From Clostridium beijerinckii HUN142 (lineage in GTDB: Bacteria; Bacillota; Clostridia; Clostridiales; Clostridiaceae), in assembly GCF_000621745.1 (NCBI RefSeq), contig NZ_KK211336.1, forward strand, positions 208,876-272,875: DNA of 64,000 nt, written 5' to 3'. The translations under genes were made by a program, and so were the position numbers. Below are positions 2,845 through 64,000 of the stretch, in pieces. Below the pieces are notes generated by a model. That model was not told the DNA's origin. It was given only the letters and a program-made list of their open reading frames with translations, and did not search any database. How positions within the stretch are numbered: position 1 is the first letter of the stretch; each line of letters starts with the position of its first letter.

Positions 2845-3462
2845 ATGTTTTTATTTGGCGGGAATAAATTAAAGGTAAGAAGCGAAGAAGATGAGGATGG
2901 AGTTAAAACTTTCGTGGAATACTATGGAATGAAGAAAAGCGATGAATTTAAAGTAAAGGTTTTAAATGAAATGATTGGAGAAAACCTTTGTTTAATAGTT
3001 TTAGACTCTAGAATGTTGTATTTTGGAAATCAAGTGGAACATGAGGTGCCAGTTGAAGAAATAATAGAGCATTTAGGAATTTCAAGAATAGCATATAAGA
3101 AGTTTGAAATAAAGAAGGTACCAGAAGTATCTATGTTTGGTATTAGCATAAAAAAGGGAACTAAAAAAACTGATAAAGATTATGTAATAGGATTTGTTGT
3201 AAATAAGTATAATTTTAAAAGAATTGAAGAATATGTAAATAGAATGAATCTATATTATTTCATAGATAACGCTGGACTTAGTGAAGAGGATTTATTACAG
3301 AAGTTGAGTGAAAATTATGAAGAAATTGATGAAATGAGTAAGGAATTTTACTGTGAGATATTTAATAATAATTACATAAGTCAGTTAGTTATTTCATCAG
3401 AAAATGAGAACGCTATGGCAATAAAGGAAACGGTTGGCAGGTGCCATTCTGAGTTAAAATAA
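2845..3462 (+). CDS. Hypothetical protein, 205 aa
   Basis: I do not recognise this protein. It is acidic and soluble-looking, with no signal peptide, membrane segment or cysteine motif. It ends in a region rich in Glu. I chose the ATG at 2845 because AGGAG at 2831-2835 is 9 bases upstream; an in-frame TTG at 2824 lacks such a site. It stands alone between the thrS terminator and polC and is followed by its own probable terminator. Codon use matches the neighbouring core genes, so it may be a resident clostridial gene rather than a recent arrival. Confidence 0.75.
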   Translation: MFLFGGNKLKVRSEEDEDGVKTFVEYYGMKKSDEFKVKVLNEMIGENLCLIVLDSRMLYFGNQVEHEVPVEEIIEHLGISRIAYKKFEIKKVPEVSMFGISIKKGTKKTDKDYVIGFVVNKYNFKRIEEYVNRMNLYYFIDNAGLSEEDLLQKLSENYEEIDEMSKEFYCEIFNNNYISQLVISSENENAMAIKETVGRCHSELK

Positions 3463-3693
3463 ATAGTTTCACTCTAAGAAGAATGTATGCAAATTTTATT
3501 ATTTATTAATTTACTAGTGAATTCAACGTCTAATAGAATTAGCAAACATTCTTTTGCCTTGACAACATTATTAGATTATGGAATGATAATTAGATGTCGG
3601 AAAACTACTAATTGATTAATTATTTTACAAATGAAAAATTAGTTGAGATTAAAAAATGATATAAATATTATCTAGATTAAATATGAGGGAGGT

Positions 3694-9555: not shown

Positions 9556-10578
9556 CTATAATACATTAATAGGGTGTAAATCCTTAATAATTATTGATTT
9601 ATTCATTGCGAGTACGTTTGTCAGTAAAGTTTTCTTCAACTCAACTTTATCAAGTGATTTATTTAGTTCAAGAAATCTATGCCAAAATAAATAATTATCC
9701 ATATATTTAGTTGATACACCATTAAAGTGAAGATTAATCCACTTTCCAAGCCTTTTATGATATTCATTAACATGTTGCATATGATATAATTTTTCGATTA
9801 CATATTGTTTTTTAGAAGCATTTACTTGCTTATGCTCTAAACCCTTCATTTTTGCAAATGATAAATAATTCTTTGCCGAGTCACTTATTAATAAAGCATT
9901 AGGGGCAATATAATTGCCTATGACATTATCTATTTGTGTAGCAGTAATACGCCCCATACCAGCATTTCTACTAATTATGTGACCATTTCTATCCATAGCA
10001 ACTAAAATACAAACCTGTTCATGGCTTATGCCTCTAAATTTAGATTTACCACCTCTTTTGTTGGGTTTGCGAGTTTTACATTGGTTTTTCCCTTTAAATG
10101 GCTCTATGAAGAAGGTTTCATCTGACTCAATGATACCAGACAATTGTTCTATATCCATTGAACGTAAAGAATTAAGCACTTTATGTCTCCAATAAAAGGC
10201 TGTTGAAATACTTATATTAAGAGCCTTTGCGATTTTGGGTAGAGTTGTTCCCTCTGATATAAATTGAAAATATTTAGCCCATTTTTGAGGATAATGTGTT
10301 CCTGCCATTGGACTACAAGATACATCATTAAAGGTTTTGCCACAATCTTTACATTTATAACGTTGTCGGCTACGATATTTTCCATGACCAATAATATGTT
10401 CACTATTACAATGAGGACAAAACGTACCCTTTGAAAAACGTGTTTCTCTAATGGTTTCTATATAATCATTAACTCTATCAGAACTGTTCTTAACAAGAGG
10501 ATATATCAAGTTGAAAAACATATTTTGAACCACTGGTGATAACTTTTGAAATTCATCAAATAAGATATTTATATCCAT
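9556..10578 (-). CDS. IS1595-family (ISXO2-like) transposase
   Basis: The 340-residue protein has an N-terminal zinc ribbon (FCPHCNSE ... CKDCGK, about 53-80), a helix-turn-helix region, and an ISXO2-like DDE/N catalytic domain with ESDETFF near 150, LISDSAKNY near 232 and VNEYHKRLGKW near 268. The family moves IS1595-type insertion sequences. The gene is full length and shows no frameshift, so it could be active. I could not define terminal inverted repeats or a target duplication by eye. Directly upstream on the same strand lies a broken DUF4440-like gene that seems to be cut by this insertion. Confidence 0.9.
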   Translation of the reverse strand: MDINILFDEFQKLSPVVQNMFFNLIYPLVKNSSDRVNDYIETIRETRFSKGTFCPHCNSEHIIGHGKYRSRQRYKCKDCGKTFNDVSCSPMAGTHYPQKWAKYFQFISEGTTLPKIAKALNISISTAFYWRHKVLNSLRSMDIEQLSGIIESDETFFIEPFKGKNQCKTRKPNKRGGKSKFRGISHEQVCILVAMDRNGHIISRNAGMGRITATQIDNVIGNYIAPNALLISDSAKNYLSFAKMKGLEHKQVNASKKQYVIEKLYHMQHVNEYHKRLGKWINLHFNGVSTKYMDNYLFWHRFLELNKSLDKVELKKTLLTNVLAMNKSIIIKDLHPINVL

Positions 10579-21200: not shown

Positions 21201-24200
21201 ATGACGAGAGAAAGTAATTTTGAATATGTAAAGGGGACAGATATAGAAGAATGCTACGAAAATTTAAAGAAGGCGGAATTTGTATATCAAAGTTTTCCTG
21301 ATGCAACAATTATGTGTTTAAGATCAATAGCGGAAACTGTTTTAATAAAAGTCAGGAATGAATTTTACAAAAGTGCAGATAATAGTGGAACTTATTATGG
21401 AATAATGGGTGAACTCATAACTGTTTCTGAAGTAAAGTTCTCAAAAGTGTATAGAGAATTTAATATTATAAGACTTAATGGGAATTATGTACTTCATCCT
21501 GAGGCTGTAATAGAAGAAGAAACAAAAAGGACGCCCACTGAACTTTTAGAGATTATGCATAACATTCTTATCTGGTATCTTCAAGATATAAAAAATAAAA
21601 GTTCTATTGATAGTAGTAAAATCAAGTTTATAAATCCAAATAATTTTAATAATGAAAAAAAAGAATTAACTGAGGTAAAAAAGAAGATTTCAGAAAAGAA
21701 TAAGAAAATATCTGAATTGAAATTAAAGATAAAGCAGCTTAAGGATTCAGAGAAGGATAAGGCTGATCAGTTATTTAAGTTAAACAAAGAAATAGATAAT
21801 ATAAATGTGGAAAGACTTGAATTAAAAGAAAAAGATGAGTTATTAGAAAAGAAGATTAAAGAGCATGATAAAGAAATAGAGACTATAAAAAAGAAATATA
21901 AAATTGATCTCCAAGAAAAAATTGAGAAATTTAAAAAGGAACATAGAGAATCTGAAAAAGCTTCTAATGAGGCTGAATTAGCAGCAGTTAAGAATGAAAT
22001 TTTAATAAAGAATAATGAAATAGCAGAATTAAAAAGTAAGATAGATGATTTCAAAGAAGAATCTAAGGATAAATTAGAATTACAAAAGGAAATTGAAAAA
22101 ATAAAAGCTGAAAAAGAAAAACTAGAATCAATGGATTCTATTTTAACTAAAGGGATTAAAGAGTATGATATTGAGGTAAAAAGAATTAAGGAGCAGCACA
22201 AAAGGGACTTAGATGACAAAATTAATGAGTTAAAAAGTAAAGAAGATACATATTTAAAAGAAAAAGAAGAATTAAATAATATTAGACAAAAAATACATTC
22301 AAAAGAAAATGAAATAAATGAACTAAAAGCAAAAGTAGATGAGTTAAGGCAACAGTCTAAAGAAATAAATTTACTTAAAATAAGTATAGATGATTTGCAA
22401 AGTGAAAAAGGTTATTTAGAAAATCGTGATAGAATATTAACTAATACGATTCTTGAAAAGAATAAAGAACTAGAAAATATAAAAGAAGCTTATAAAGCTA
22501 ATGTTGAAAAGATTGAAATATTACGTAAAGAGCGTAATGAATCAAATGCGTCTCTTAAAAATAAGGAAGAAAAGCTTATTAAGGTTGAAAAAGAGAACTT
22601 TGAACTAAAAAAACAACTTAAGGAAATAGAAGAAACAGCTAAAATTGAAGCTATAAAGAGAGATGAAGAGTTAAAGAGAAAAGAAAAAGAGCTGCATGAA
22701 GGGATAGAAAAATTAAGACAAGCTTATAAAAATTCTTTTGAATTAACCAGGGAGTATCAAGATGTTCTAGAAAAAAGTGAGTATTCTTATGATAAAGAAG
22801 AAGAAAGATTATTAAATATTCAAAAGACAGATGTTAAAGAAAAATTAGTTGAAGAGGATAAGAGCTTTCATAATAATTTAAATGAATATAGTGAGGGCGT
22901 GAAAGAAACTAATGAAAGAATAAGAACCTTCAAGAAGGTATTAAAAGAGAAGAGCATTAAGGAAGGTAAACACGTAGCATTTTATAGAGGCTTTTTAGGA
23001 TTAGAAGCAGAGCAACTTAGAATTTTATATACAATGCTTACTAAGACCAATATTTCCTCAATTTTAATTAGTAAGTCTAAGGAATTACTATCACAATCTA
23101 ATGAAGATAAGTTCATGGAATTTATACATAAAAAAGCACGAGAATTGAATCATTTATCAGATGAGGAAGTAAGATTAAAAATTTATTATAGATTAATTAA
23201 ATTAACTGATATTGAATATAAAAACATTTATGAAAGAAGAAGTTTTGTTGAAACTTTAGATGAAATAGTAAATGCAGGATATTCAATATTAGAAGGAAAA
23301 AAAGATTTCAAAGGTGGAGGCTCAAAGTTAGAAGCCATAGGTACATATTATTTAGAAAAAGTACTAGAGGATTTTAAAAATAAATATGATAGTGGAGATA
23401 TAAAAGTACAGCAGGAATTAATTGATAACATTTATAATAATTTTCAAAGGTTAAGTGAAAAAGCTAAAAAAGAAATTTATGACGAGTTACATTTGAAAAG
23501 TACTTCTGAAAGTACAGTTAAAGCAGCCATAAGATCAGCCCCCTTTGTATTTTTATCTACTACTATAACTGTTGGGGGATTTTCAGCATTTAGTGCAGTT
23601 TCAAGTATAATTTTCGGAATTTCACATTTACTAGGAACAACTTTTTCATATGGGGTATATACTGGGGCTTCATCATTATTAAGCTTTTTCAGCGGGCCTT
23701 TTATGGTAATACTTTTTATTGTAAATGGAGGATTTTTGCTTACTCAACATAAAAAACAGCAATTAGAGTTAGTACCTTTATTTATAATGCAAACCATAAT
23801 TACTAATGTAGCTATAGAAAAAACAAAAATAAACTTTGATAACTATGATACTATGATTGAATTATGGAAAAGAGAAAAAGGGAATTTTGACAAAATTACC
23901 ATACAAAAAAGATTGCAGGAAAATATCTTAAATAATTATACAAAAGAAAGAGATGAACTTGCTGCTAAATCAGAACAAGTGTCTAGAGCTATTAATACAT
24001 TATGGGAAGAACATGCAAAATATAATTATAAGTTTAAAGATATTGTGTTAAGCTCTGATAAAAAAGTATATCTAAACTCATATGCGGAGTATAGCAGTAC
24101 TATAAATAAACTGGAAATGGTTCAAAAAGAAATAGATGAAACTAAAAACAAGGTAGGAACCTTAAAAAGCATATTTAGTTTAGATATGTGGAAAGGGCAA

Positions 24201-24380
24201 TCTTCAAAGCTTGTAAATGAAATGAACATAATAAATATGGAAAAGTCATTAGTTGAAGAAGCAAAACAAAGCCAATACTTTAAGGAAGAAAGTGCTTTAT
24301 TTTCAGAATTGCAGCAAAAGATAGATGTATTAAATGAAATTCAAAATAAAACTAAAGAAAAGATAAAAGATAAAAGATAA
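21201..24380 (+). CDS. Giant coiled-coil membrane protein with DUF4145-like N-terminus
   Basis: The 1059-residue protein begins with an alpha-helical domain (about 10-130; ATIMCLRSIAETVLIKV, GNYVLHPE) that resembles DUF4145, which is often found in restriction and other phage-defence proteins. A very long Lys/Glu-rich coiled coil follows (about 150-545). A conserved helical region comes next (about 590-770), then two or three membrane helices (about 779-850), and a final coiled coil (about 890-1059). There is no ATPase or nuclease motif that I can see. ATG follows AGGGGAGA. It is a lone gene ending at a strong terminator. A role in defence or membrane stress is a guess. Confidence 0.75.
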   Translation: MTRESNFEYVKGTDIEECYENLKKAEFVYQSFPDATIMCLRSIAETVLIKVRNEFYKSADNSGTYYGIMGELITVSEVKFSKVYREFNIIRLNGNYVLHPEAVIEEETKRTPTELLEIMHNILIWYLQDIKNKSSIDSSKIKFINPNNFNNEKKELTEVKKKISEKNKKISELKLKIKQLKDSEKDKADQLFKLNKEIDNINVERLELKEKDELLEKKIKEHDKEIETIKKKYKIDLQEKIEKFKKEHRESEKASNEAELAAVKNEILIKNNEIAELKSKIDDFKEESKDKLELQKEIEKIKAEKEKLESMDSILTKGIKEYDIEVKRIKEQHKRDLDDKINELKSKEDTYLKEKEELNNIRQKIHSKENEINELKAKVDELRQQSKEINLLKISIDDLQSEKGYLENRDRILTNTILEKNKELENIKEAYKANVEKIEILRKERNESNASLKNKEEKLIKVEKENFELKKQLKEIEETAKIEAIKRDEELKRKEKELHEGIEKLRQAYKNSFELTREYQDVLEKSEYSYDKEEERLLNIQKTDVKEKLVEEDKSFHNNLNEYSEGVKETNERIRTFKKVLKEKSIKEGKHVAFYRGFLGLEAEQLRILYTMLTKTNISSILISKSKELLSQSNEDKFMEFIHKKARELNHLSDEEVRLKIYYRLIKLTDIEYKNIYERRSFVETLDEIVNAGYSILEGKKDFKGGGSKLEAIGTYYLEKVLEDFKNKYDSGDIKVQQELIDNIYNNFQRLSEKAKKEIYDELHLKSTSESTVKAAIRSAPFVFLSTTITVGGFSAFSAVSSIIFGISHLLGTTFSYGVYTGASSLLSFFSGPFMVILFIVNGGFLLTQHKKQQLELVPLFIMQTIITNVAIEKTKINFDNYDTMIELWKREKGNFDKITIQKRLQENILNNYTKERDELAAKSEQVSRAINTLWEEHAKYNYKFKDIVLSSDKKVYLNSYAEYSSTINKLEMVQKEIDETKNKVGTLKSIFSLDMWKGQSSKLVNEMNIINMEKSLVEEAKQSQYFKEESALFSELQQKIDVLNEIQNKTKEKIKDKR

Positions 24381-57673: not shown

Positions 57674-58246
57674 TTAATAATAAAATGAAATATTATTGTG
57701 GATTTTTCTTAGAATGTTTTTCTTTCTTACAATAGCAGTAGAATAACACATATTTTTTATATGGGCATAATCCAGAACTGTATAATTTTTAAAGAATACA
57801 AAATCTATAAGTTCTTTCTCATCTTTAGTTAAATTTTTTAGAGCTAGTCTTAAGTCTTCATAATCACACATTTCACATAATGAAGTTTCAGGAGAGATTT
57901 CTTGTGATGGAATGTCCTTTTCAAAATTATCATGTAAGCTTAGAGCTTTATTTCCTTCAGTAGAGCTTCTAGTTTTAATCCTCTTAATCAAATCATTCAT
58001 ATTATTTTTAATGGCATTGGTAGCATAAGCAACGAATCTATGCTTATCTAAGTTATACATAGAGATAGATTTAAAAAGCGATTGATAACATTCCTGAATA
58101 ATATCATATGAGTTATATCCATCAATGAAAGTTCTCTTTGAGATATTATAAATTAATGGTCTAAATTCTTCAGCTAATTTTTCTTTTGCTCCTTCGTCAT
58201 TATCTTTGCACCTAGTAACTAAAGTTTCGATATAATTAAAATCCAT
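57674..58246 (-). CDS. Sigma-70 family RNA polymerase sigma factor
   Basis: The 190-residue protein has sigma region 2 (FRPLIYNISKRTFIDGYNSY then DIIQECYQSLFKSISMY) and region 4 (LKNLTKDEKELIDFVFFKNY then a helix-turn-helix with CYSTAIVRKKNIL). The length and layout fit the small sigma group that includes clostridial TcdR/UviA-type and Bacillus SigO-like factors. ATG 58246 follows GAAGGAGGTTTAT. In many clostridia this type of gene stands with YvrJ, DUF1659, DUF2922 and amidase genes, all of which occur in this window. Confidence 0.92.
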   Translation of the reverse strand: MDFNYIETLVTRCKDNDEGAKEKLAEEFRPLIYNISKRTFIDGYNSYDIIQECYQSLFKSISMYNLDKHRFVAYATNAIKNNMNDLIKRIKTRSSTEGNKALSLHDNFEKDIPSQEISPETSLCEMCDYEDLRLALKNLTKDEKELIDFVFFKNYTVLDYAHIKNMCYSTAIVRKKNILRKIHNNISFYY

Positions 58247-58414
58247 ATAAACCTCCTTCATACATAAGATCTATAAAATTAATGAATTATTTTACATATA
58301 TTGTGTTTGATGTTAAATTAATCTCTACATATAGTATATATGGTCAAAATGTATATAACGTATAGATAAAAGTAATTTTGAGAAGAAAAATTATTATAAA
58401 GGATGCTAGATGAA

Positions 58415-58709
58415 TTGGTAATGGTAATAGGTATGGTTGTGATGAGTGATATAAAATAGCAGATCAAGCTAATGAAATAGCAGAAACAAGAAATATAAAA
58501 TTCTATGTGGAGATTCATATTAATGCAGGGGGAAGATAGTGGTACTGAAGTGATAGGATTTTAGGAATTAGAAGTAGATAATCAATATGCTGAGAAAGTA
58601 TGTGATGAATTATCAAGTGTTTTGAATTTACCTAACAGGGGAGACAGGAAGTCTTATTGGTATTATTAAGAATGTAATGCAAGCAATATTGGTTGAGTTA
58701 GGAGTGTAG
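58415..58709 (+). pseudogene. N-acetylmuramoyl-L-alanine amidase (Amidase_3), broken
   Basis: Pieces in different frames read ADQANEIAETRNIKFYVEIH then INAGG, SGTEVIGF, NQYAEKVCDELSSVLNLPNR and GSLIGIIKNVMQAILVELGV. These are the Amidase_3 motifs (zinc His in EIHINA, GTEV, and VELG at the end). At least three frame breaks and stops are present, so it is dead. It lies beside the sigma factor gene. Confidence 0.85.
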
Positions 58710-58826
58710 CAGAAAAAACCTCTACATAGACTAAATATAAAGAAGTACTATGATTAAAATATTTATTCTAATTTGGTTTAGTAGCTAATATAACTAATAG
58801 TGTTAGTAATTCATCAAGGTGTTAGA

Positions 58827-59396
58827 ATGACTTTAAAATCATTATATACCTTTTTTAAAGCATACTTTAATTATGTTACATCTGGAAATCGTGCTTATGC
58901 AAGAGCAATTTCAGAAGCAATGGCAGTTATTAGAGATACATTAGCCCAGAAAACTTTGAATCCAATACAAATATATTTGCACAAGCCATTTTCTTTTAAA
59001 CTTGCTAAAGATATGCTTCAAAAAGCAGTTTCACTTGCTATGTCACAATACCAAGACCCTTTTAATGAAATCCAATATTTTAAGATCACAGTAACTATAG
59101 ATAAAAGTTTTATTACTACTAATCATAAGGGAATAAATATACCAATAGAAGGCGGATGGGATAATAAAAATAATAAGCTTATTATTATTGCATTTAGTCA
59201 ACCAAGTAACATGATAGATGAAGTTAGGGTAATCAAAGGATTGATTAAAGAATTTACGATAGTAGGTACTTTACCGGTAAATATTAAAACAGTAGCTTAT
59301 TGGGATCTAAGTAAGGGAAAGATAGCTGAGATAGACTATCAGGCTTTGCAGCCAGTAGATAAACAGAGTTTGATTAATGCGGCTAATAGGATTTGA
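58827..59396 (+). CDS. Hypothetical protein, 189 aa
   Basis: I place the start at 58827, where CAAGGTGTTAG precedes ATG; an upstream GTG is possible. The protein is soluble and mixed alpha/beta (RAISEAMAVIRDTLAQKTLN, FKITVTIDKSFITTNHKGIN, GTLPVNIKTVAYWDLSKGKI). No family is recognised. It follows the broken amidase gene and ends at a strong terminator, so it may once have belonged to the same unit. Confidence 0.65.
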   Translation: MTLKSLYTFFKAYFNYVTSGNRAYARAISEAMAVIRDTLAQKTLNPIQIYLHKPFSFKLAKDMLQKAVSLAMSQYQDPFNEIQYFKITVTIDKSFITTNHKGINIPIEGGWDNKNNKLIIIAFSQPSNMIDEVRVIKGLIKEFTIVGTLPVNIKTVAYWDLSKGKIAEIDYQALQPVDKQSLINAANRI

Positions 59397-59416
59397 TATA
59401 ATAATTAATTTACTAT

Positions 59417-59452
59417 AGCTGAATATTTATTTCAAATAAATATTCAGCTTTT
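59417..59452 (+). terminator. Terminator of the 58827 gene
   Basis: AGCTGAATATTTATT pairs perfectly with AATAAATATTCAGCT and is followed by TTTG. Confidence 0.9.
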
Positions 59453-59559
59453 GAACTCTCATTTAAAGAGTAATAACTAGGAAATAAAATATAGGTATCT
59501 ATTTAGCAAATTATTCTTTATTGGGGTAAATTTGAATATATTAATATTAATGGTAATAT

Positions 59560-59720
59560 CTAATACAAATATAGGTAATATAATCAAATATTGTAGTATA
59601 ATAAGGATAGATTATCTGCTTGAAAAAGATAGTCTATCCTTATTATGTTTTTTTGAAGAAAATTCAGAAGGAACGATTCTAAGACGTACAATTATGTCTA
59701 TAATGGGAAGTTGATATTTA
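59560..59720 (+). promoter_or_regulatory. Leader of the small membrane gene with embedded terminator
   Basis: ATTGTAGTATAATAA (TATAAT 59597-59602) is shared with 53425-53440. A perfect 14-bp stem (59598-59611 with 59633-59646) with a T tail overlaps this -10 box. The end (ATGTCTATAATGGGAAGTTG) matches the end of the promoter-bearing leader repeat at 30690-30800. Confidence 0.55.
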
Positions 59721-59783
59721 AAAAGCAAAGTGTTTATTTTAAAATCATAATATTTAATATAATTTTTAGGAGAGTGGAAAATT

Positions 59784-59975
59784 ATGAATTTCTTAGATCC
59801 GTCAACGGTTCATGGAGCATTAATAATCGGAATAATTGGAGGATTAATAAGCGGTGCAATTATTGGATTCTTTTCAGGAAAAACATATTAGAAAAATGTT
59901 GTGAAAAAAGCAAAAAACAAAACAAAAGGCGATCGAAATATTAATATCCAAAATTCAGAGATAAAGGGGAATTAG
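59784..59975 (+). pseudogene. Tiny membrane protein with Asn/Gln-rich tail, interrupted by amber codon
   Basis: ATG after TAGGAGAGTGGAAA opens a 35-residue ORF: MNFLDPSTVHG, then one glycine-rich membrane helix (LIIGIIGGLISGAIIGFF), then SGKTY and TAG (59889-59891). The same frame goes on for 27 codons (KNVVKKAKNKTKGDRNINIQ then NSEIKGN) to a second TAG. The tail carries the motif found at the start of the next protein. The gene may be broken, read through, or make two forms. The next gene begins 4 bases after the second stop. Confidence 0.65.
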
Positions 59976-59979
59976 TATC

Positions 59980-61266
59980 ATGTTTGGAGTGAGTGATAAT
60001 AAGATTGTTTCGAAAAATAAAACAAAAGGTAATGGAAATGTTAACATTCAAAATTCGAATATACGTATTAATAATGGAATGGATGAAGTTTTGGAACTTG
60101 CCAAATCAGGAGATAATGTAGGAGCGTTAAAAAAGATGGGAGTATTTCAAAGATGTTTTGGGGCAATGCATCCATTATATCCTGATTTTAGATATAGTTT
60201 GAATATGAATGAAAAAGGAGTGTCTATCAAATTAGTTGCAAACAACGAAGAGGCTATAAAAAAATATCCTCCACATGGTACGATTAAGTTTATAATCCCT
60301 GATGAATACAAGTGGGCTAAGAATATAAATGAATTAATAAGATATGGCTACGAAAACCAAGTACCTATAAAGTTAAAAAGTGAAAGTATTAGATTGTGGT
60401 TAGGAAATTACTTGATGGAAGAAATAGAAAATGTCAGTGAAGTAAAGATAATACCAGAAAAATTTCCAGATCCTATTCCTATGAAATTTGAATTCGAAAA
60501 AACTCTATTTACATTGGATTATTTAGAAATGGGACTTATAAGAATAGAAAATGATTATTTAATATTAAGTAATGAAAAGCAAGAAAATACTAAATTGATT
60601 TTAACGTTATCTATAAATAGGGGCAATATTTTAGATAATAAATTTAATATAAAAGTAGCTACTCAATATAAAAATGATGTAGCAGCTAATCTAAAAATGA
60701 ATAAATTTCTACTTAACATGGGTTACGAAGGTATTAAAAAACTTGTTACATTAAAAAATGATAGAGAAATTATATCTTTTCAAGATTCAAATATAAATTG
60801 TACAAGTAGAAAAGACATTGAAAAAGAGATAGCATTATTAGAAAGGCTTAATACTTTAGAAAAGTATTATGGTGTGGTGTTTAAATTACCTAAAAAAATA
60901 ACCAGAGATGATTATGAAAATTTATTAGTATTGGAAAAAAGTATGAATAATGAACCAATAACAGGAACATATAGTGAACTGACATTGTTAGTAACAGTTG
61001 ATTCTGGTTTTAATCAAACGCAAATGATTAGTAAAGATACTGGGAGTATTATGGAATGTGTATTTGATGATCAAGAAATTGAACTTTTTGACCAAAAAAT
61101 AATTTTTAAGGAGATGAGGATAAATTATCATAATACAGTAGTTGATAATAAGGAAAAAACCTTAAAAAAATTTGAATTTGCAGATGATGGTGATGTAATA
61201 AAAATTAAGTTTATACCGTTAGATGAGAATGATAATATTTTTAAGATATATTATATATTTAAATAG
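59980..61266 (+). CDS. 428-aa protein with N-terminal Asn/Gln motif
   Basis: Residues 11-30 (VSKNKTKGNGNVNIQNSNIR) match the tail of the preceding tiny membrane protein. The rest is soluble, mixed alpha/beta and not recognised (GVFQRCFGAMHPLYPDFRYS, LIRIENDYLILSNEKQENTK, LLVTVDSGFNQTQMISKDTG). There is no visible ATPase, nuclease or TIR motif. ATG follows AAAGGGG by about 10 bases, and the gene is probably translated together with the tiny gene. Matching short motifs in neighbouring genes are known from amyloid-type signalling pairs (effector plus sensor), which suggests but does not prove such a role here. Confidence 0.75.
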   Translation: MFGVSDNKIVSKNKTKGNGNVNIQNSNIRINNGMDEVLELAKSGDNVGALKKMGVFQRCFGAMHPLYPDFRYSLNMNEKGVSIKLVANNEEAIKKYPPHGTIKFIIPDEYKWAKNINELIRYGYENQVPIKLKSESIRLWLGNYLMEEIENVSEVKIIPEKFPDPIPMKFEFEKTLFTLDYLEMGLIRIENDYLILSNEKQENTKLILTLSINRGNILDNKFNIKVATQYKNDVAANLKMNKFLLNMGYEGIKKLVTLKNDREIISFQDSNINCTSRKDIEKEIALLERLNTLEKYYGVVFKLPKKITRDDYENLLVLEKSMNNEPITGTYSELTLLVTVDSGFNQTQMISKDTGSIMECVFDDQEIELFDQKIIFKEMRINYHNTVVDNKEKTLKKFEFADDGDVIKIKFIPLDENDNIFKIYYIFK

Positions 61267-61583
61267 ACGGTTTTGTATACAATGGGAATTTTAGGAATCT
61301 AGGAATAGGAATGGATCATGGATGATATAGATAATATTTATAATTACAATAAATTATAGTGCTTGCAAATTCGAGTAATATGGTTGTAAATATGTACGAG
61401 TTTTATATCTGTGATTTAATTCAAAAGTCTTTACTTGCTAGTACTAAAGCTATAGCAGACACTTTAATTGACATAAGTAAATAAGGATTAGCCAAATAGC
61501 ATCAAAATTATTTAATTTATTTTTGTACTTATTATAGCAAGACAAACATTATAGAATAAATAAAAAATTTAAGGAGAATATTA
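61267..61583. other. Spacer between the 428-aa gene and the SIR2 gene
   Basis: No terminator or clear promoter is seen. A short ORF (61380-61484, 34 codons, ending in STKAIADTLIDISK) has no ribosome site and may be a remnant. Confidence 0.4.
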
Positions 61584-64000
61584 ATGATAAATTTTATTAA
61601 TGAGAGTAAAAGAATAATTAAAAAAGCTAGTGAAAATAATAAGCTAGTTCTATTTGTTGGTTCGGGAGTATCTGCGAATTCTGGTTATCCATCTTGGATA
61701 AGTCTTGTTGAAGAATTTGCAAAAGGTATAGGAATAGATACTAAAAATATTTCTTCTGAAGACTATTTGAAAATACCACAGTATTATTATAATTCACGAA
61801 AAGAAAAAGACTATTATGATGTAATATTTAATAAATTTAATATTAAAGTTAAGCCAAATAGTATACATGATCTCGTCTTTGAACTAAATCCATATCATGT
61901 GGTAACCACAAATTATGATGAATTGCTAGAGGATGCAGCTGATAGTAAAGGGATGTTTTATGATGTTGTTTCTAAAGATAAGGATTTACCATATACGCCA
62001 AATGGTAAAATGATTATAAAAATGCATGGAGATTTGAAAAATAAAAACATAGTATTAAAGGAAGATGATTACTTATCTTATTTTAAGAATTACAAACTTA
62101 TACAAAACTACATAAAGTCTTTGATATCAACACATACAATTTTATTTATTGGTTACTCAATAAATGATATTAATGTAAAATATATTTTTCAATGGGTAAA
62201 AGATATTTTAGGGAATGATTTTCAACAGGCATATTTTTTAGATACAGATGAAAATAAAAAATTTAATCAAATGGAATTTGAATATTATAAGAATAGAGGA
62301 ATTAATATTCTTTATTATTCTCAAATAAAAGATTTAAAATTTTTAAAAAATAATGTACAACCTTCAAACTTAACTAATGAAAAAGGGAAAAATACATATA
62401 AATTTTTAAAATATCTATTAGATGAAAATGATAAGAGTATAATTAATATTGATTATTTTTATGATAAATTAATAAATCTAAATAATTTGAATAAAATAAG
62501 ATTTAAAGATATAACAACGGCTTTAAATTTAGAAACACCATTTGAAGAAGATGGAAAAATAATCTTTTCTCATTTTAATGTTAAAGGAAATGAATTAGAA
62601 TTATACACAAGTGTGGTAAAAGATTTGTTTGGTGAAATTAAAGAATATGAAGATAAAATAAATGAAATAGAAAATTGTAGCGATGATAATGACAGGGAAA
62701 AAATAAAGAAAGAAGTTGATTATTCTAAAAAAGCAAAAATAGAGTTGGTTAAGCAAGTGTTTTTCAAGGCTGGTATAAGAAAGATAATAGAAAGAGATAA
62801 AGAACGAAAAGTTATAGTTTTGGTTGAATTAAATAAAGAGGAAAATAATGAATTTGTAGAAAATTATATTTTGAAATTTGATTATTACAATCTTCAAAGG
62901 CACTTGGACAATATGAGTTTAAATAATGAAGAAAGCAATGAAATACATCTAGAAAAGGCGTATATACTATATAAATTAGGAGAATATTTTCAAGCTTATG
63001 TAACATTAAAAAAATTGTCTGAAAGTTGTTTTAGAAATAAAAAATATTACTTATATTTCATTTCTGAAATTAACCGATATTATTTAGGTCATTTACTTGC
63101 ATATGTTAATCCTTTTGCTTTAGGTAAATTAGGAATAGACATGAATACTCAAAAAATAATAAGAAAAGAAATTAATAAAATTGATTTAAATGATATATAT
63201 TTAAAATTACCTTCAAATAGTAGATCAAGCCTAATATTTTTAAGAGATATATCAAATTTTAAATTCATATTCAGCAAGATAAAAGATACTATTGATATGA
63301 AGGAAGAGGTTGAGAAGGATAAAGATACCATTTATAGTGGATATTTAAATGAAGGTGGTAAAATTTATGAATTTAATAATGATATAAAAGATTTTTGGAA
63401 TTACATAAATAAAAATAAAATTATGTTAGACAATTATAATGAGATTGAAAAGGTATTTTATAATTACATAGAAGGTGCTTTATTAAGTCATATGATTGTG
63501 TATAAAGAGAAAAAAGAAACTTTTTGGGGAATTCCAGGCAAGGTTATAAAACTTGAAGAAATAGACTATTTCACTGTATTCTTAATGTTGGTATATTTAA
63601 ACAAAAAAACTATTAAATATTTATTTGAAAAATATGAAGTAGAAAAAATTAAGTTGGAAGAAGGTGCTCTGGAATCTTTAAAAGAAGCTTATAACAATAT
63701 CATTGCGTCTATATTGAGAGAAAAAAATATTATAACGATTAAGGAAATATTCAAAAATTATTTATATATATTATCTAGAATAGATGTAGGAAAAGAACTT
63801 TTTAGCGAAATAATAGATGGGTTTCTTGAAGTTATACATAAATATAGCAATAATGAATTAAGAGAGCTTTATGACAATCTGGAGGTTTTTGTAATCAATC
63901 AAAACAATAATTATAAGTTAAATCTTTGTAATGAAAAGATTGAAGAGGTTTTAAACTATATTCTAGAGAAACCATTTGTTGAAAAAGAAAATTCTTATTA
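61584..64000 (+). CDS. SIR2-domain defence-type protein (runs past window end)
   Basis: ATG after TAAGGAGAATATTA opens a frame that is still open at the window end (805 codons). The first 270 residues form a SIR2 domain: FVGSGVSANSGYPSW (24-38), VTTNYDELLE with Asn110, KMHGDL with His148, and LFIGYSINDINVKYIF. These match the NAD-binding and catalytic positions of defence-associated sirtuins, which destroy NAD+ on phage infection. The remaining 530 residues are helical, Lys/Glu-rich and repeat-like, as in the large DSR1/DSR2-type sensors, but I cannot name the subtype. The genes just upstream may or may not belong to it. Confidence 0.9.
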   Translation, partial: MINFINESKRIIKKASENNKLVLFVGSGVSANSGYPSWISLVEEFAKGIGIDTKNISSEDYLKIPQYYYNSRKEKDYYDVIFNKFNIKVKPNSIHDLVFELNPYHVVTTNYDELLEDAADSKGMFYDVVSKDKDLPYTPNGKMIIKMHGDLKNKNIVLKEDDYLSYFKNYKLIQNYIKSLISTHTILFIGYSINDINVKYIFQWVKDILGNDFQQAYFLDTDENKKFNQMEFEYYKNRGINILYYSQIKDLKFLKNNVQPSNLTNEKGKNTYKFLKYLLDENDKSIINIDYFYDKLINLNNLNKIRFKDITTALNLETPFEEDGKIIFSHFNVKGNELELYTSVVKDLFGEIKEYEDKINEIENCSDDNDREKIKKEVDYSKKAKIELVKQVFFKAGIRKIIERDKERKVIVLVELNKEENNEFVENYILKFDYYNLQRHLDNMSLNNEESNEIHLEKAYILYKLGEYFQAYVTLKKLSESCFRNKKYYLYFISEINRYYLGHLLAYVNPFALGKLGIDMNTQKIIRKEINKIDLNDIYLKLPSNSRSSLIFLRDISNFKFIFSKIKDTIDMKEEVEKDKDTIYSGYLNEGGKIYEFNNDIKDFWNYINKNKIMLDNYNEIEKVFYNYIEGALLSHMIVYKEKKETFWGIPGKVIKLEEIDYFTVFLMLVYLNKKTIKYLFEKYEVEKIKLEEGALESLKEAYNNIIASILREKNIITIKEIFKNYLYILSRIDVGKELFSEIIDGFLEVIHKYSNNELRELYDNLEVFVINQNNNYKLNLCNEKIEEVLNYILEKPFVEKENSY

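What the first reader, a model, noticed from the sequence alone, without database searches (positions are those of the whole stretch)
59784..61266. Two adjacent genes share an Asn/Gln-rich motif, like an amyloid-type signalling pair
The tail of a tiny single-helix membrane protein (KNKTKGDRNINIQNSEIK) and the start of the next, 428-residue protein (KNKTKGNGNVNIQNSNIR) match at 13 of 18 positions, while the DNA differs at many third positions, so the protein sequence appears to be conserved. In known bacterial amyloid signalling a membrane-active effector and a neighbouring sensor carry matching short motifs. The 428-residue body matches nothing I know. With a SIR2 defence gene next, this may be an undescribed phage-defence module.
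Basis: partly seen in the sequence, partly recalled or inferred. Interest (0 to 1): 0.85.

Follow-up and report, generated by a model that had tools for sequence, protein, structure and literature searches.

The report
Matched-motif membrane peptide with AbiGii-like protein
A tiny membrane protein and its neighbour, a relative of a phage-defence protein, carry the same short asparagine-rich motif in several distant bacteria, as if the two recognise each other through it; in this particular genome the tiny gene is interrupted by a stop codon.

Summary
The 428-aa protein is an AbiGii relative (PADLOC E 5e-12; profile-profile E 6e-10), not an unknown.

Eight loci in five lineages (Clostridium, Geobacillus, Terribacillus, two further clostridial genomes) carry a small membrane gene directly before an AbiGii-like gene, sharing a motif (scores 50-76); nine related proteins without this arrangement score 19-35. 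The best of 18,088 unrelated tail-head combinations scores 49. The motif changes between lineages, yet own pairing ranks 1 of 120. In 6 of 6 canonical AbiGii loci opened, AbiGi occupies this slot. In two genomes a related C-terminal half follows a SIR2 domain and no motif gene is present.

Best reading: a defence module in which an AbiGii-like protein signals to a membrane effector through a homotypic, amyloid-type motif without an NLR. Amyloid formation, membrane damage and phage protection are untested. The window copy is probably damaged; its SIR2 neighbour is not a conserved partner.

The parts
59784..59891 (+). 5' part of the small gene: 35 aa with one glycine-rich hydrophobic helix (residues 12-30), ended by an in-frame TAG
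   Evidence: hydropathy; orthologues open in L004, L005, L002
59892..59975 (+). 3' remainder of the small gene behind the stop (27 codons, then TAG): lysine-rich stretch plus motif
   Evidence: dN/dS against L004/L005 0.23-0.24 on few sites
59913..59966 (+). motif, small-gene copy (18 codons)
59980..61266 (+). AbiGii-like gene, 428 aa
   Evidence: PADLOC AbiGii E 5.1e-12; Pfam AbiGii_2 22.8 bits, below the cut-off of 25; no NCBIfam match at E<=1; profile-profile with canonical AbiGii E 6.4e-10 over 282 columns
60013..60066 (+). motif, N-terminal copy in the AbiGii-like protein (residues 12-29)
61584..64000 (+). neighbouring SIR2-domain gene (runs past the window end; 1036 aa in the genome); defence neighbour, not shown to be part of the module
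   Evidence: SIR2_2 E 3.9e-26; ThsA-type SIR2 E 2e-40; full length; no AbiGii-like part

Best explanation
A two-gene abortive-infection-type module. The AbiGii-like protein is the sensor or regulator. Its N-terminal motif, in the place where related proteins carry a SIR2 domain, pairs homotypically (probably as a short cross-beta, amyloid-type seed) with the same motif at the cytosolic C-terminus of the small membrane protein. Clustering of the membrane helices then damages the membrane and stops the infected cell. Shown by sequence: the conserved gene pair, the motifs that differ between lineages but match within loci, the slot taken from AbiGi, and two SIR2 fusions without the motif gene. 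Inferred: direct binding, amyloid structure, membrane damage, phage trigger. In the window strain the small gene is interrupted by a stop between helix and motif, so this copy probably does not work as a pair.
For: 8 of 8 motif-bearing AbiGii-like loci have the small membrane+motif gene directly upstream (gap -23 to +5 nt with the starts I chose), with scores 50-76 against 19-35 for 9 control loci. L060 was found by a profile that did not contain it and had the predicted partner. Own pairing ranks 1 of 120 across five lineages; with the first four lineages within-locus scores (62-69) equalled or exceeded every cross-lineage score. Chance controls. Identical residues often use different codons (86 identical residues over 7 pairs, 53 with the same codon; differences by codon position 29/22/52). 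In the six small genes tallied whole, 8-10 K/R and 1-6 D/E follow the helix against 0-1 K/R and 1-2 D/E before it, so by the positive-inside rule (established knowledge) the motif should be cytosolic. SIR2 fusions L037 and L055 share the family's C-terminal half (profile of both: E 7.7e-10, 190 columns) and have no motif gene in the 500 nt upstream. Other defence genes lie nearby: SIR2 (window), TIR PDC-S66 (L005).
Against: No amyloid predictor could be run; the AlphaFold model was poor (pLDDT 37.6). The motif does not resemble two published BASS3-type peptides beyond a weak level. Pairing specificity is not clean: the L060 small tail scores 57 with the L005 protein and 50 with its own, and cross-lineage small-small and big-big scores reach 73 and 66; within Clostridium own partners are not always best (L002 tail 58 with its own, 75 with the L005 protein). 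L060's own score (50) is barely above the highest unrelated combination (49). The window small gene has a stop and the G046 large gene has a TGA, so 2 of 4 Clostridium copies look damaged. AbiGii assignment is uneven: no NCBIfam match for the window protein, no PADLOC match for L036, no Pfam AbiGii_2 match for L004-L007. The sample is small: the queries tried gave 3 plasmid records, no phage record and no viral contig. Function in defence is by association only.
Confidence: 0.5

Rival explanations
1. The small protein is an antitoxin or tether, not an effector: it sits in the AbiGi slot, binds the AbiGii-like protein through the shared motif and holds it inactive at the membrane until infection. 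(Confidences here are not exclusive of one another.)
For: Same gene slot as AbiGi, which is directly upstream in 6 of 6 canonical loci opened and is annotated as antitoxin; tight coupling of the two genes; a short helix plus motif would suffice as a tether.
Against: The small proteins scanned (window helix piece, L004, L006, L007, L036, L060) show no AbiGi match in Pfam. Passages read in PMC3985639 report that of the lactococcal two-component Abi genes cloned singly only AbiEii inhibited E. coli growth, so the toxin/antitoxin labels of AbiG are weak. SIR2 fusions suggest that the N-terminal slot carries an output rather than an anchor.
Confidence: 0.28
2. The shared motif is a plain homotypic beta-strand or solenoid contact that makes a membrane-bound complex, with no amyloid polymer and no signalling by templating.
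For: The pairing evidence asks only for specific contact; no amyloid evidence exists.
Against: N-terminal receptor / C-terminal effector placement, about 20 residues, N/Q/G-rich, adjacent genes: the layout described for amyloid signalling in PMC7889193 (passages) and PMC8086366 (section 6).
Confidence: 0.35
3. A partial tandem duplication or local gene conversion keeps the two segments alike at the DNA level, without functional pairing.
For: DNA identity within the motif blocks is 59-85% by pair.
Against: Codons of identical residues differ often (86 identical, 53 same codon); the large proteins of different lineages are only 22-34% identical and yet every pair is kept; the tail scores only 21-35 against the rest of its own large protein.
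Confidence: 0.1
4. The module and the downstream SIR2 gene form one three-gene defence system.
For: SIR2 starts 317 nt downstream; a related C-terminal half is fused to SIR2 in two genomes.
Against: The downstream neighbour is not conserved: DUF2971 in L004, TIR in L005, an integrase on the other strand in L006; the SIR2 protein matches neither AbiGii profile, and I see no motif at its N-terminus.
Confidence: 0.1

Closest known systems
AbiG (AbiGi/AbiGii), lactococcal abortive infection
   Same: The large protein is homologous over about 280 columns to AbiGii; same two-gene layout with the partner directly upstream
   Different: AbiGi is replaced by a 50-71-aa membrane+motif protein; the large protein has an extra N-terminus with the motif, which the six canonical AbiGii opened lack
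NLR-associated bacterial amyloid signalling (BASS motifs with Bell effectors)
   Same: Adjacent genes; matched motif of about 20 residues at the C-terminus of a membrane-helix protein and the N-terminus of the larger partner; motif diversity
   Different: The partner is AbiGii-like, with no NLR/STAND domain in the Pfam scans; the effector is one short helix rather than a helical bundle; hosts are clostridia and bacilli rather than the mainly filamentous actinobacteria and cyanobacteria named in PMC7889193 (passages)
RHIM / RHIM-like motifs
   Same: Short hydrophobic-N/Q alternating core, placed for homotypic pairing
   Different: No Pfam RHIM match in the scans made; core is IQNS-like rather than the canonical RHIM pattern (recalled)
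SIR2 defence proteins (ThsA-type SIR2 domains)
   Same: Two relatives combine a SIR2 domain with the family's C-terminal half
   Different: The window's SIR2 gene is separate and has a different C-terminal part

Membership tests
AbiG system | Large protein belongs to AbiGii (PF16873 over Pfam's cut-off, or equivalent) | tested here: inconclusive
   Window 22.8 bits, below 25; L036 25.9 and L060 31.9, above; L004-L007 no AbiGii_2 match at E<=1. PADLOC AbiGii: window E 5.1e-12, 3 of 6 members of A1, L036 none at E<=0.1. NCBIfam: none for the window protein. hhalign with canonical AbiGii E 6.4e-10. Homology is supported, formal membership is not for most members
AbiG system | AbiGi (PF10899) gene directly upstream | tested here: not met
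   The slot holds the small membrane+motif gene in 8 of 8 loci; neighbours scanned in the window, L004, L005, L036 and L060 show no AbiGi
NLR-associated BASS signalling | Matched motif at C-terminus of effector and N-terminus of receptor in adjacent genes | tested here: met
   8 of 8 loci; in the window the effector copy lies behind a stop codon
NLR-associated BASS signalling | NLR/STAND nucleotide-binding domain in the receptor | tested here: not met
   No such Pfam domain at E<=1 in the large proteins of window, L004-L007, L036, L060; L002 not scanned
NLR-associated BASS signalling | Motif belongs to one of the BASS1-10 profiles | not testable with these tools
   Profiles not held; comparison with two published peptides was weak
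NLR-associated BASS signalling | Bell-domain effector | tested here: inconclusive
   Small proteins are 50-71 aa with one helix; none of those scanned reached a Pfam cut-off; I know of no Bell profile in the libraries used
Functional amyloid | Cross-beta fibres and templating | not testable with these tools
   Needs peptides
RHIM | Pfam RHIM profile match | tested here: not met
   No match at E<=1 in the proteins scanned (the window tail piece and the small proteins of L002 and L005 were not scanned)
Anti-phage defence | Protects against phage | not tested
   Association only: AbiGii homology and defence neighbours

The most novel reading that the evidence does not exclude
A family of amyloid-type signalling pairs that does not depend on NLRs: an abortive-infection sensor related to AbiGii whose N-terminal output slot is either a SIR2 domain or a short self-recognising motif that fires a separate one-helix membrane effector, in unicellular clostridia and bacilli.
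Probability: 0.42. Interest if true: 0.86.

Novelty: new variant of a known kind. Interest (0 to 1): 0.68.

Why it matters
PMC7889193 (passages read) asks as an open question whether bacteria have signalling amyloids in pathways not dependent on NLRs, and notes that the searches made were biased to the NLR/executor layout. This family is a concrete, small and testable candidate: five lineages with different but matched motifs give a ready specificity matrix. It would also give the little-understood AbiG family a mechanism, and it suggests that one protein slot can be filled either by an enzyme or by a motif.

Tried and rejected
Structure of the large protein: AlphaFold with 3 sequences gave pLDDT 37.6, so no fold search was made; a job on the small protein never ran. 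Phage records: no match with the window, L006 and L060 proteins; the other large proteins and the SIR2 fusions were not searched there. Viral contigs: no match with the large proteins, the small-gene alignment or the SIR2-fusion half; canonical AbiGii gave 2 loci, L038 and L039, which were not opened. Small gene outside this context: with the L004 small protein, 45 of 147 relatives match at E<=0.1; only G000 and G046 are convincing; of the rest two loci were opened (L016, E 2.1e-4; L018, E 0.006) and are other membrane proteins. The search would miss diverged forms. The G081 match L003 is chance: it lies in an ORF that looks like mnmG by eye. TAG as pyrrolysine: no PylS over the cut-off in the genome (4 weak matches below it; of 14 controls 13 ring, 1 over the cut-off), and the large gene itself ends in TAG; rejected. 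Published BASS3-type peptides: weak. RNA element: no Rfam match at gathering threshold in 58000-62000. Promoter-like sites 23 against 19.6 +/- 4.6 in shuffles, terminators 0: uninformative. DUF2971 gene of L004 as a hidden AbiGi: no significant similarity to L010 AbiGi. SIR2-fusion half against canonical AbiGii directly: not significant. One search gave inflated control scores because it included the genes' own first bases; replaced.

Full report
What is in the window. The motif stretches are real: 13 of 18 residues identical, DNA 41 of 54. But the first stretch is not part of the small protein as this genome encodes it. The ORF from ATG 59784 reads 35 residues, most of it a glycine-rich hydrophobic helix, and stops at TAG 59889-59891; the lysine-rich stretch and motif follow in the same frame behind the stop and end at TAG 59973-59975. 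TAG is an ordinary stop here: the large gene also ends in TAG, and no pyrrolysyl-tRNA synthetase passes the cut-off in this genome. In the relatives L004 (Clostridium bowmanii), L005 (C. bovifaecis) and L002 (unnamed, same genus) the small gene is one open frame of helix plus motif. The window pieces on either side of the stop still show fewer replacement than silent changes per site against L004 and L005 (dN/dS 0.13-0.34 on 20 to 24 differences or fewer per comparison); this is compatible with recent damage but does not date it. In G046 the fault is in the partner: its large gene has an in-frame TGA.

The 428-aa protein. It matches AbiGii in PADLOC (E 5.1e-12, residues 94-422) and Pfam AbiGii_2 just below the cut-off (22.8 of 25 bits). 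The homologues L036 and L060 pass the Pfam cut-off (25.9 and 31.9); L004-L007 show no AbiGii_2 match at E<=1. In PADLOC 3 of the 6 members of alignment A1 match AbiGii, L036 does not, and NCBIfam has no match for the window protein. Profile-profile comparison of six family members with three canonical AbiGii proteins gives E 6.4e-10 over 282 columns. Canonical AbiGii proteins have AbiGi directly upstream in 6 of 6 loci opened: L010-L012 by Pfam (in L011 the AbiGi frame is apparently split) and L051-L053 by annotation (3 of 12 plasmid records found); the 2 viral loci were not opened. Their N-termini lack the motif. Here the small membrane gene takes AbiGi's place and the large protein has an extra motif-bearing N-terminus.

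How widespread. The family is rare. Matches: 3 of 147 relatives with the window protein, one of them chance; with profiles, 2 of 68 genomes of the genus, 6 of 206 of the family, 6 of 225 of the order, 3 of 391 of the class, 1 of 398 of the phylum. These sets overlap, include the own genome and include one SIR2 fusion (G075); G542 and G599 are by coordinates the same loci as L004 and L005. One genome-contig scan gave L004 and L005. Plasmids gave 3 records, phages none, viral contigs none. Bacilli genomes other than plasmids were not searched by profile.

The pair is kept. Eight motif-bearing AbiGii-like loci were found: window, L002, L004, L005 (Clostridium), L006 (Geobacillus plasmid pBt40), L007 (Terribacillus plasmid), L036 and L060 (unnamed clostridial genomes, the second from another family). 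In 8 of 8 the small helix+motif gene is directly upstream, from 23 nt overlap to 5 nt gap with the starts I chose; in the window it carries the stop. L060 was found last, by a profile that did not contain it, and had the predicted partner. Scoring any frame of the 500 nt upstream against the first 60 residues gives 50-76 for these eight and 19-35 for nine controls: two SIR2 fusions, Peribacillus L008 and six canonical AbiGii. L008, the only other homologue of the whole region, has neither motif nor small partner.

The partners match within loci. The motif differs by lineage: the Clostridium, L036 (GDMIQNS) and L060 (NNTVIQNS) forms are distinct, and L006/L007 differ again, yet each is mirrored in its neighbour. 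With L005 standing for Clostridium, own pairing is the best of 120 assignments over five lineages (315 against 294 for the next). Limits: the L060 small tail scores higher with the L005 protein (57) than with its own (50); cross-lineage small-small and big-big scores reach 73 and 66; and within Clostridium own partners are not always best (L002 tail 58 with its own, 75 with the L005 protein). With the first four lineages alone, within-locus scores were 62-69 against at most 55 (small-small), 62 (big-big) and 54 (small-big). Chance and simple DNA repeats do not explain it: among ORFs of 100 aa or more from the window and 12 loci, 0 of 18,088 tail-head combinations reach 58 (maximum 49) and 0 of 73 adjacent pairs exceed 29; shuffled tails reached the own score in at most 1 of 20000 for each of the eight pairs; and of 86 identical residues in seven pairs only 53 share the codon.

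A second form. In G075 (L037) and G025 (L055) a SIR2_2 domain is followed by a region whose second half matches the family (profile of both proteins, 190 columns, E 7.7e-10; L037 alone E 9.1e-07). L055 was found through L037 (E 1.3e-14) and was not compared with the family alone. Neither has a motif gene in the 500 nt upstream. They do not match canonical AbiGii directly. Two cases are few, but they suggest that the N-terminal slot of this family takes either an enzyme domain or a motif that calls a separate effector, a logic I know from NLRs (recalled).

How it probably works. In the six small genes tallied whole, 8-10 K/R and 1-6 D/E follow the helix against 0-1 K/R and 1-2 D/E before it (the window's 35-residue piece excluded, L060 not tallied), so the motif should face the cytosol (positive-inside rule, established knowledge). 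I propose that the AbiGii-like protein senses infection, its N-terminal motif nucleates with the partner motif, and clustering of membrane helices stops the cell. Specific pairing is inferred from the matched motifs; amyloid structure, membrane damage and phage triggering are not shown. The main rival is that the small protein tethers or restrains the large one, as its AbiGi-like position suggests. In PMC3985639 (passages read), of the lactococcal two-component Abi genes cloned singly, AbiGi and AbiGii among them, only AbiEii inhibited growth of E. coli, so the toxin/antitoxin labels carry little weight.

The SIR2 gene. It lies 317 nt downstream, is 1036 aa in the genome and matches neither AbiGii profile (families). 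Neighbours at other loci differ: DUF2971 (L004), TIR PDC-S66 (L005), an integrase (L006), so I treat it as a defence-island neighbour.

Novelty. Searches of the paper library for AbiGii with amyloid gave 2 papers, both unrelated by title and start of abstract (listing only); AbiGii with SIR2 gave none. PMC8086366 (abstract, sections 3, 6, 13 and the first part of 11), PMC12261475 (abstract and introduction) and PMC7889193 (passages) describe bacterial amyloid motifs mainly in NLR contexts; PMC7889193 adds rarer ties to CHAT and TIR domains. PMC8195603, PMC10907252, PMC12881547 and PMC4012209 (passages) gave nothing on this pair. The library is open-access papers only, so absence in print is not proven. 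Dyrka et al. 2020, which defines the BASS families, was not read.

Noticed in passing
L037:1432-3321 (G075) and L055:721-2592 (G025): SIR2-domain proteins of about 630 aa whose C-terminal half is related to the AbiGii-like family
   Followed up: partly
L050 (G046) 2897-3496 and window 57674-58261: A similar sigma-factor-like gene on the minus strand lies upstream of the module in both genomes (by eye), hinting at a shared chromosomal site
   Followed up: no
L002:1468-2757: The large gene of G046 is split by an in-frame TGA while its small gene is open, the reverse of the window
   Followed up: partly
L005:5382-6224 and L052:4241-5167: TIR-domain genes close downstream of AbiGii-like or AbiGii genes (PADLOC PDC-S66 for L005; annotation for L052)
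   Followed up: no
L004:5353-6276: DUF2971 gene 65 nt downstream of the AbiGii-like gene; possible functional stand-in for AbiGi, no significant similarity found
   Followed up: partly
window 9556-10578: Minus-strand transposase-like ORF with a zinc-ribbon-like N-terminus (read by eye)
   Followed up: no
window 21201-24380: 1059-aa coiled-coil-like protein with hydrophobic stretches and no assigned role (read by eye)
   Followed up: no
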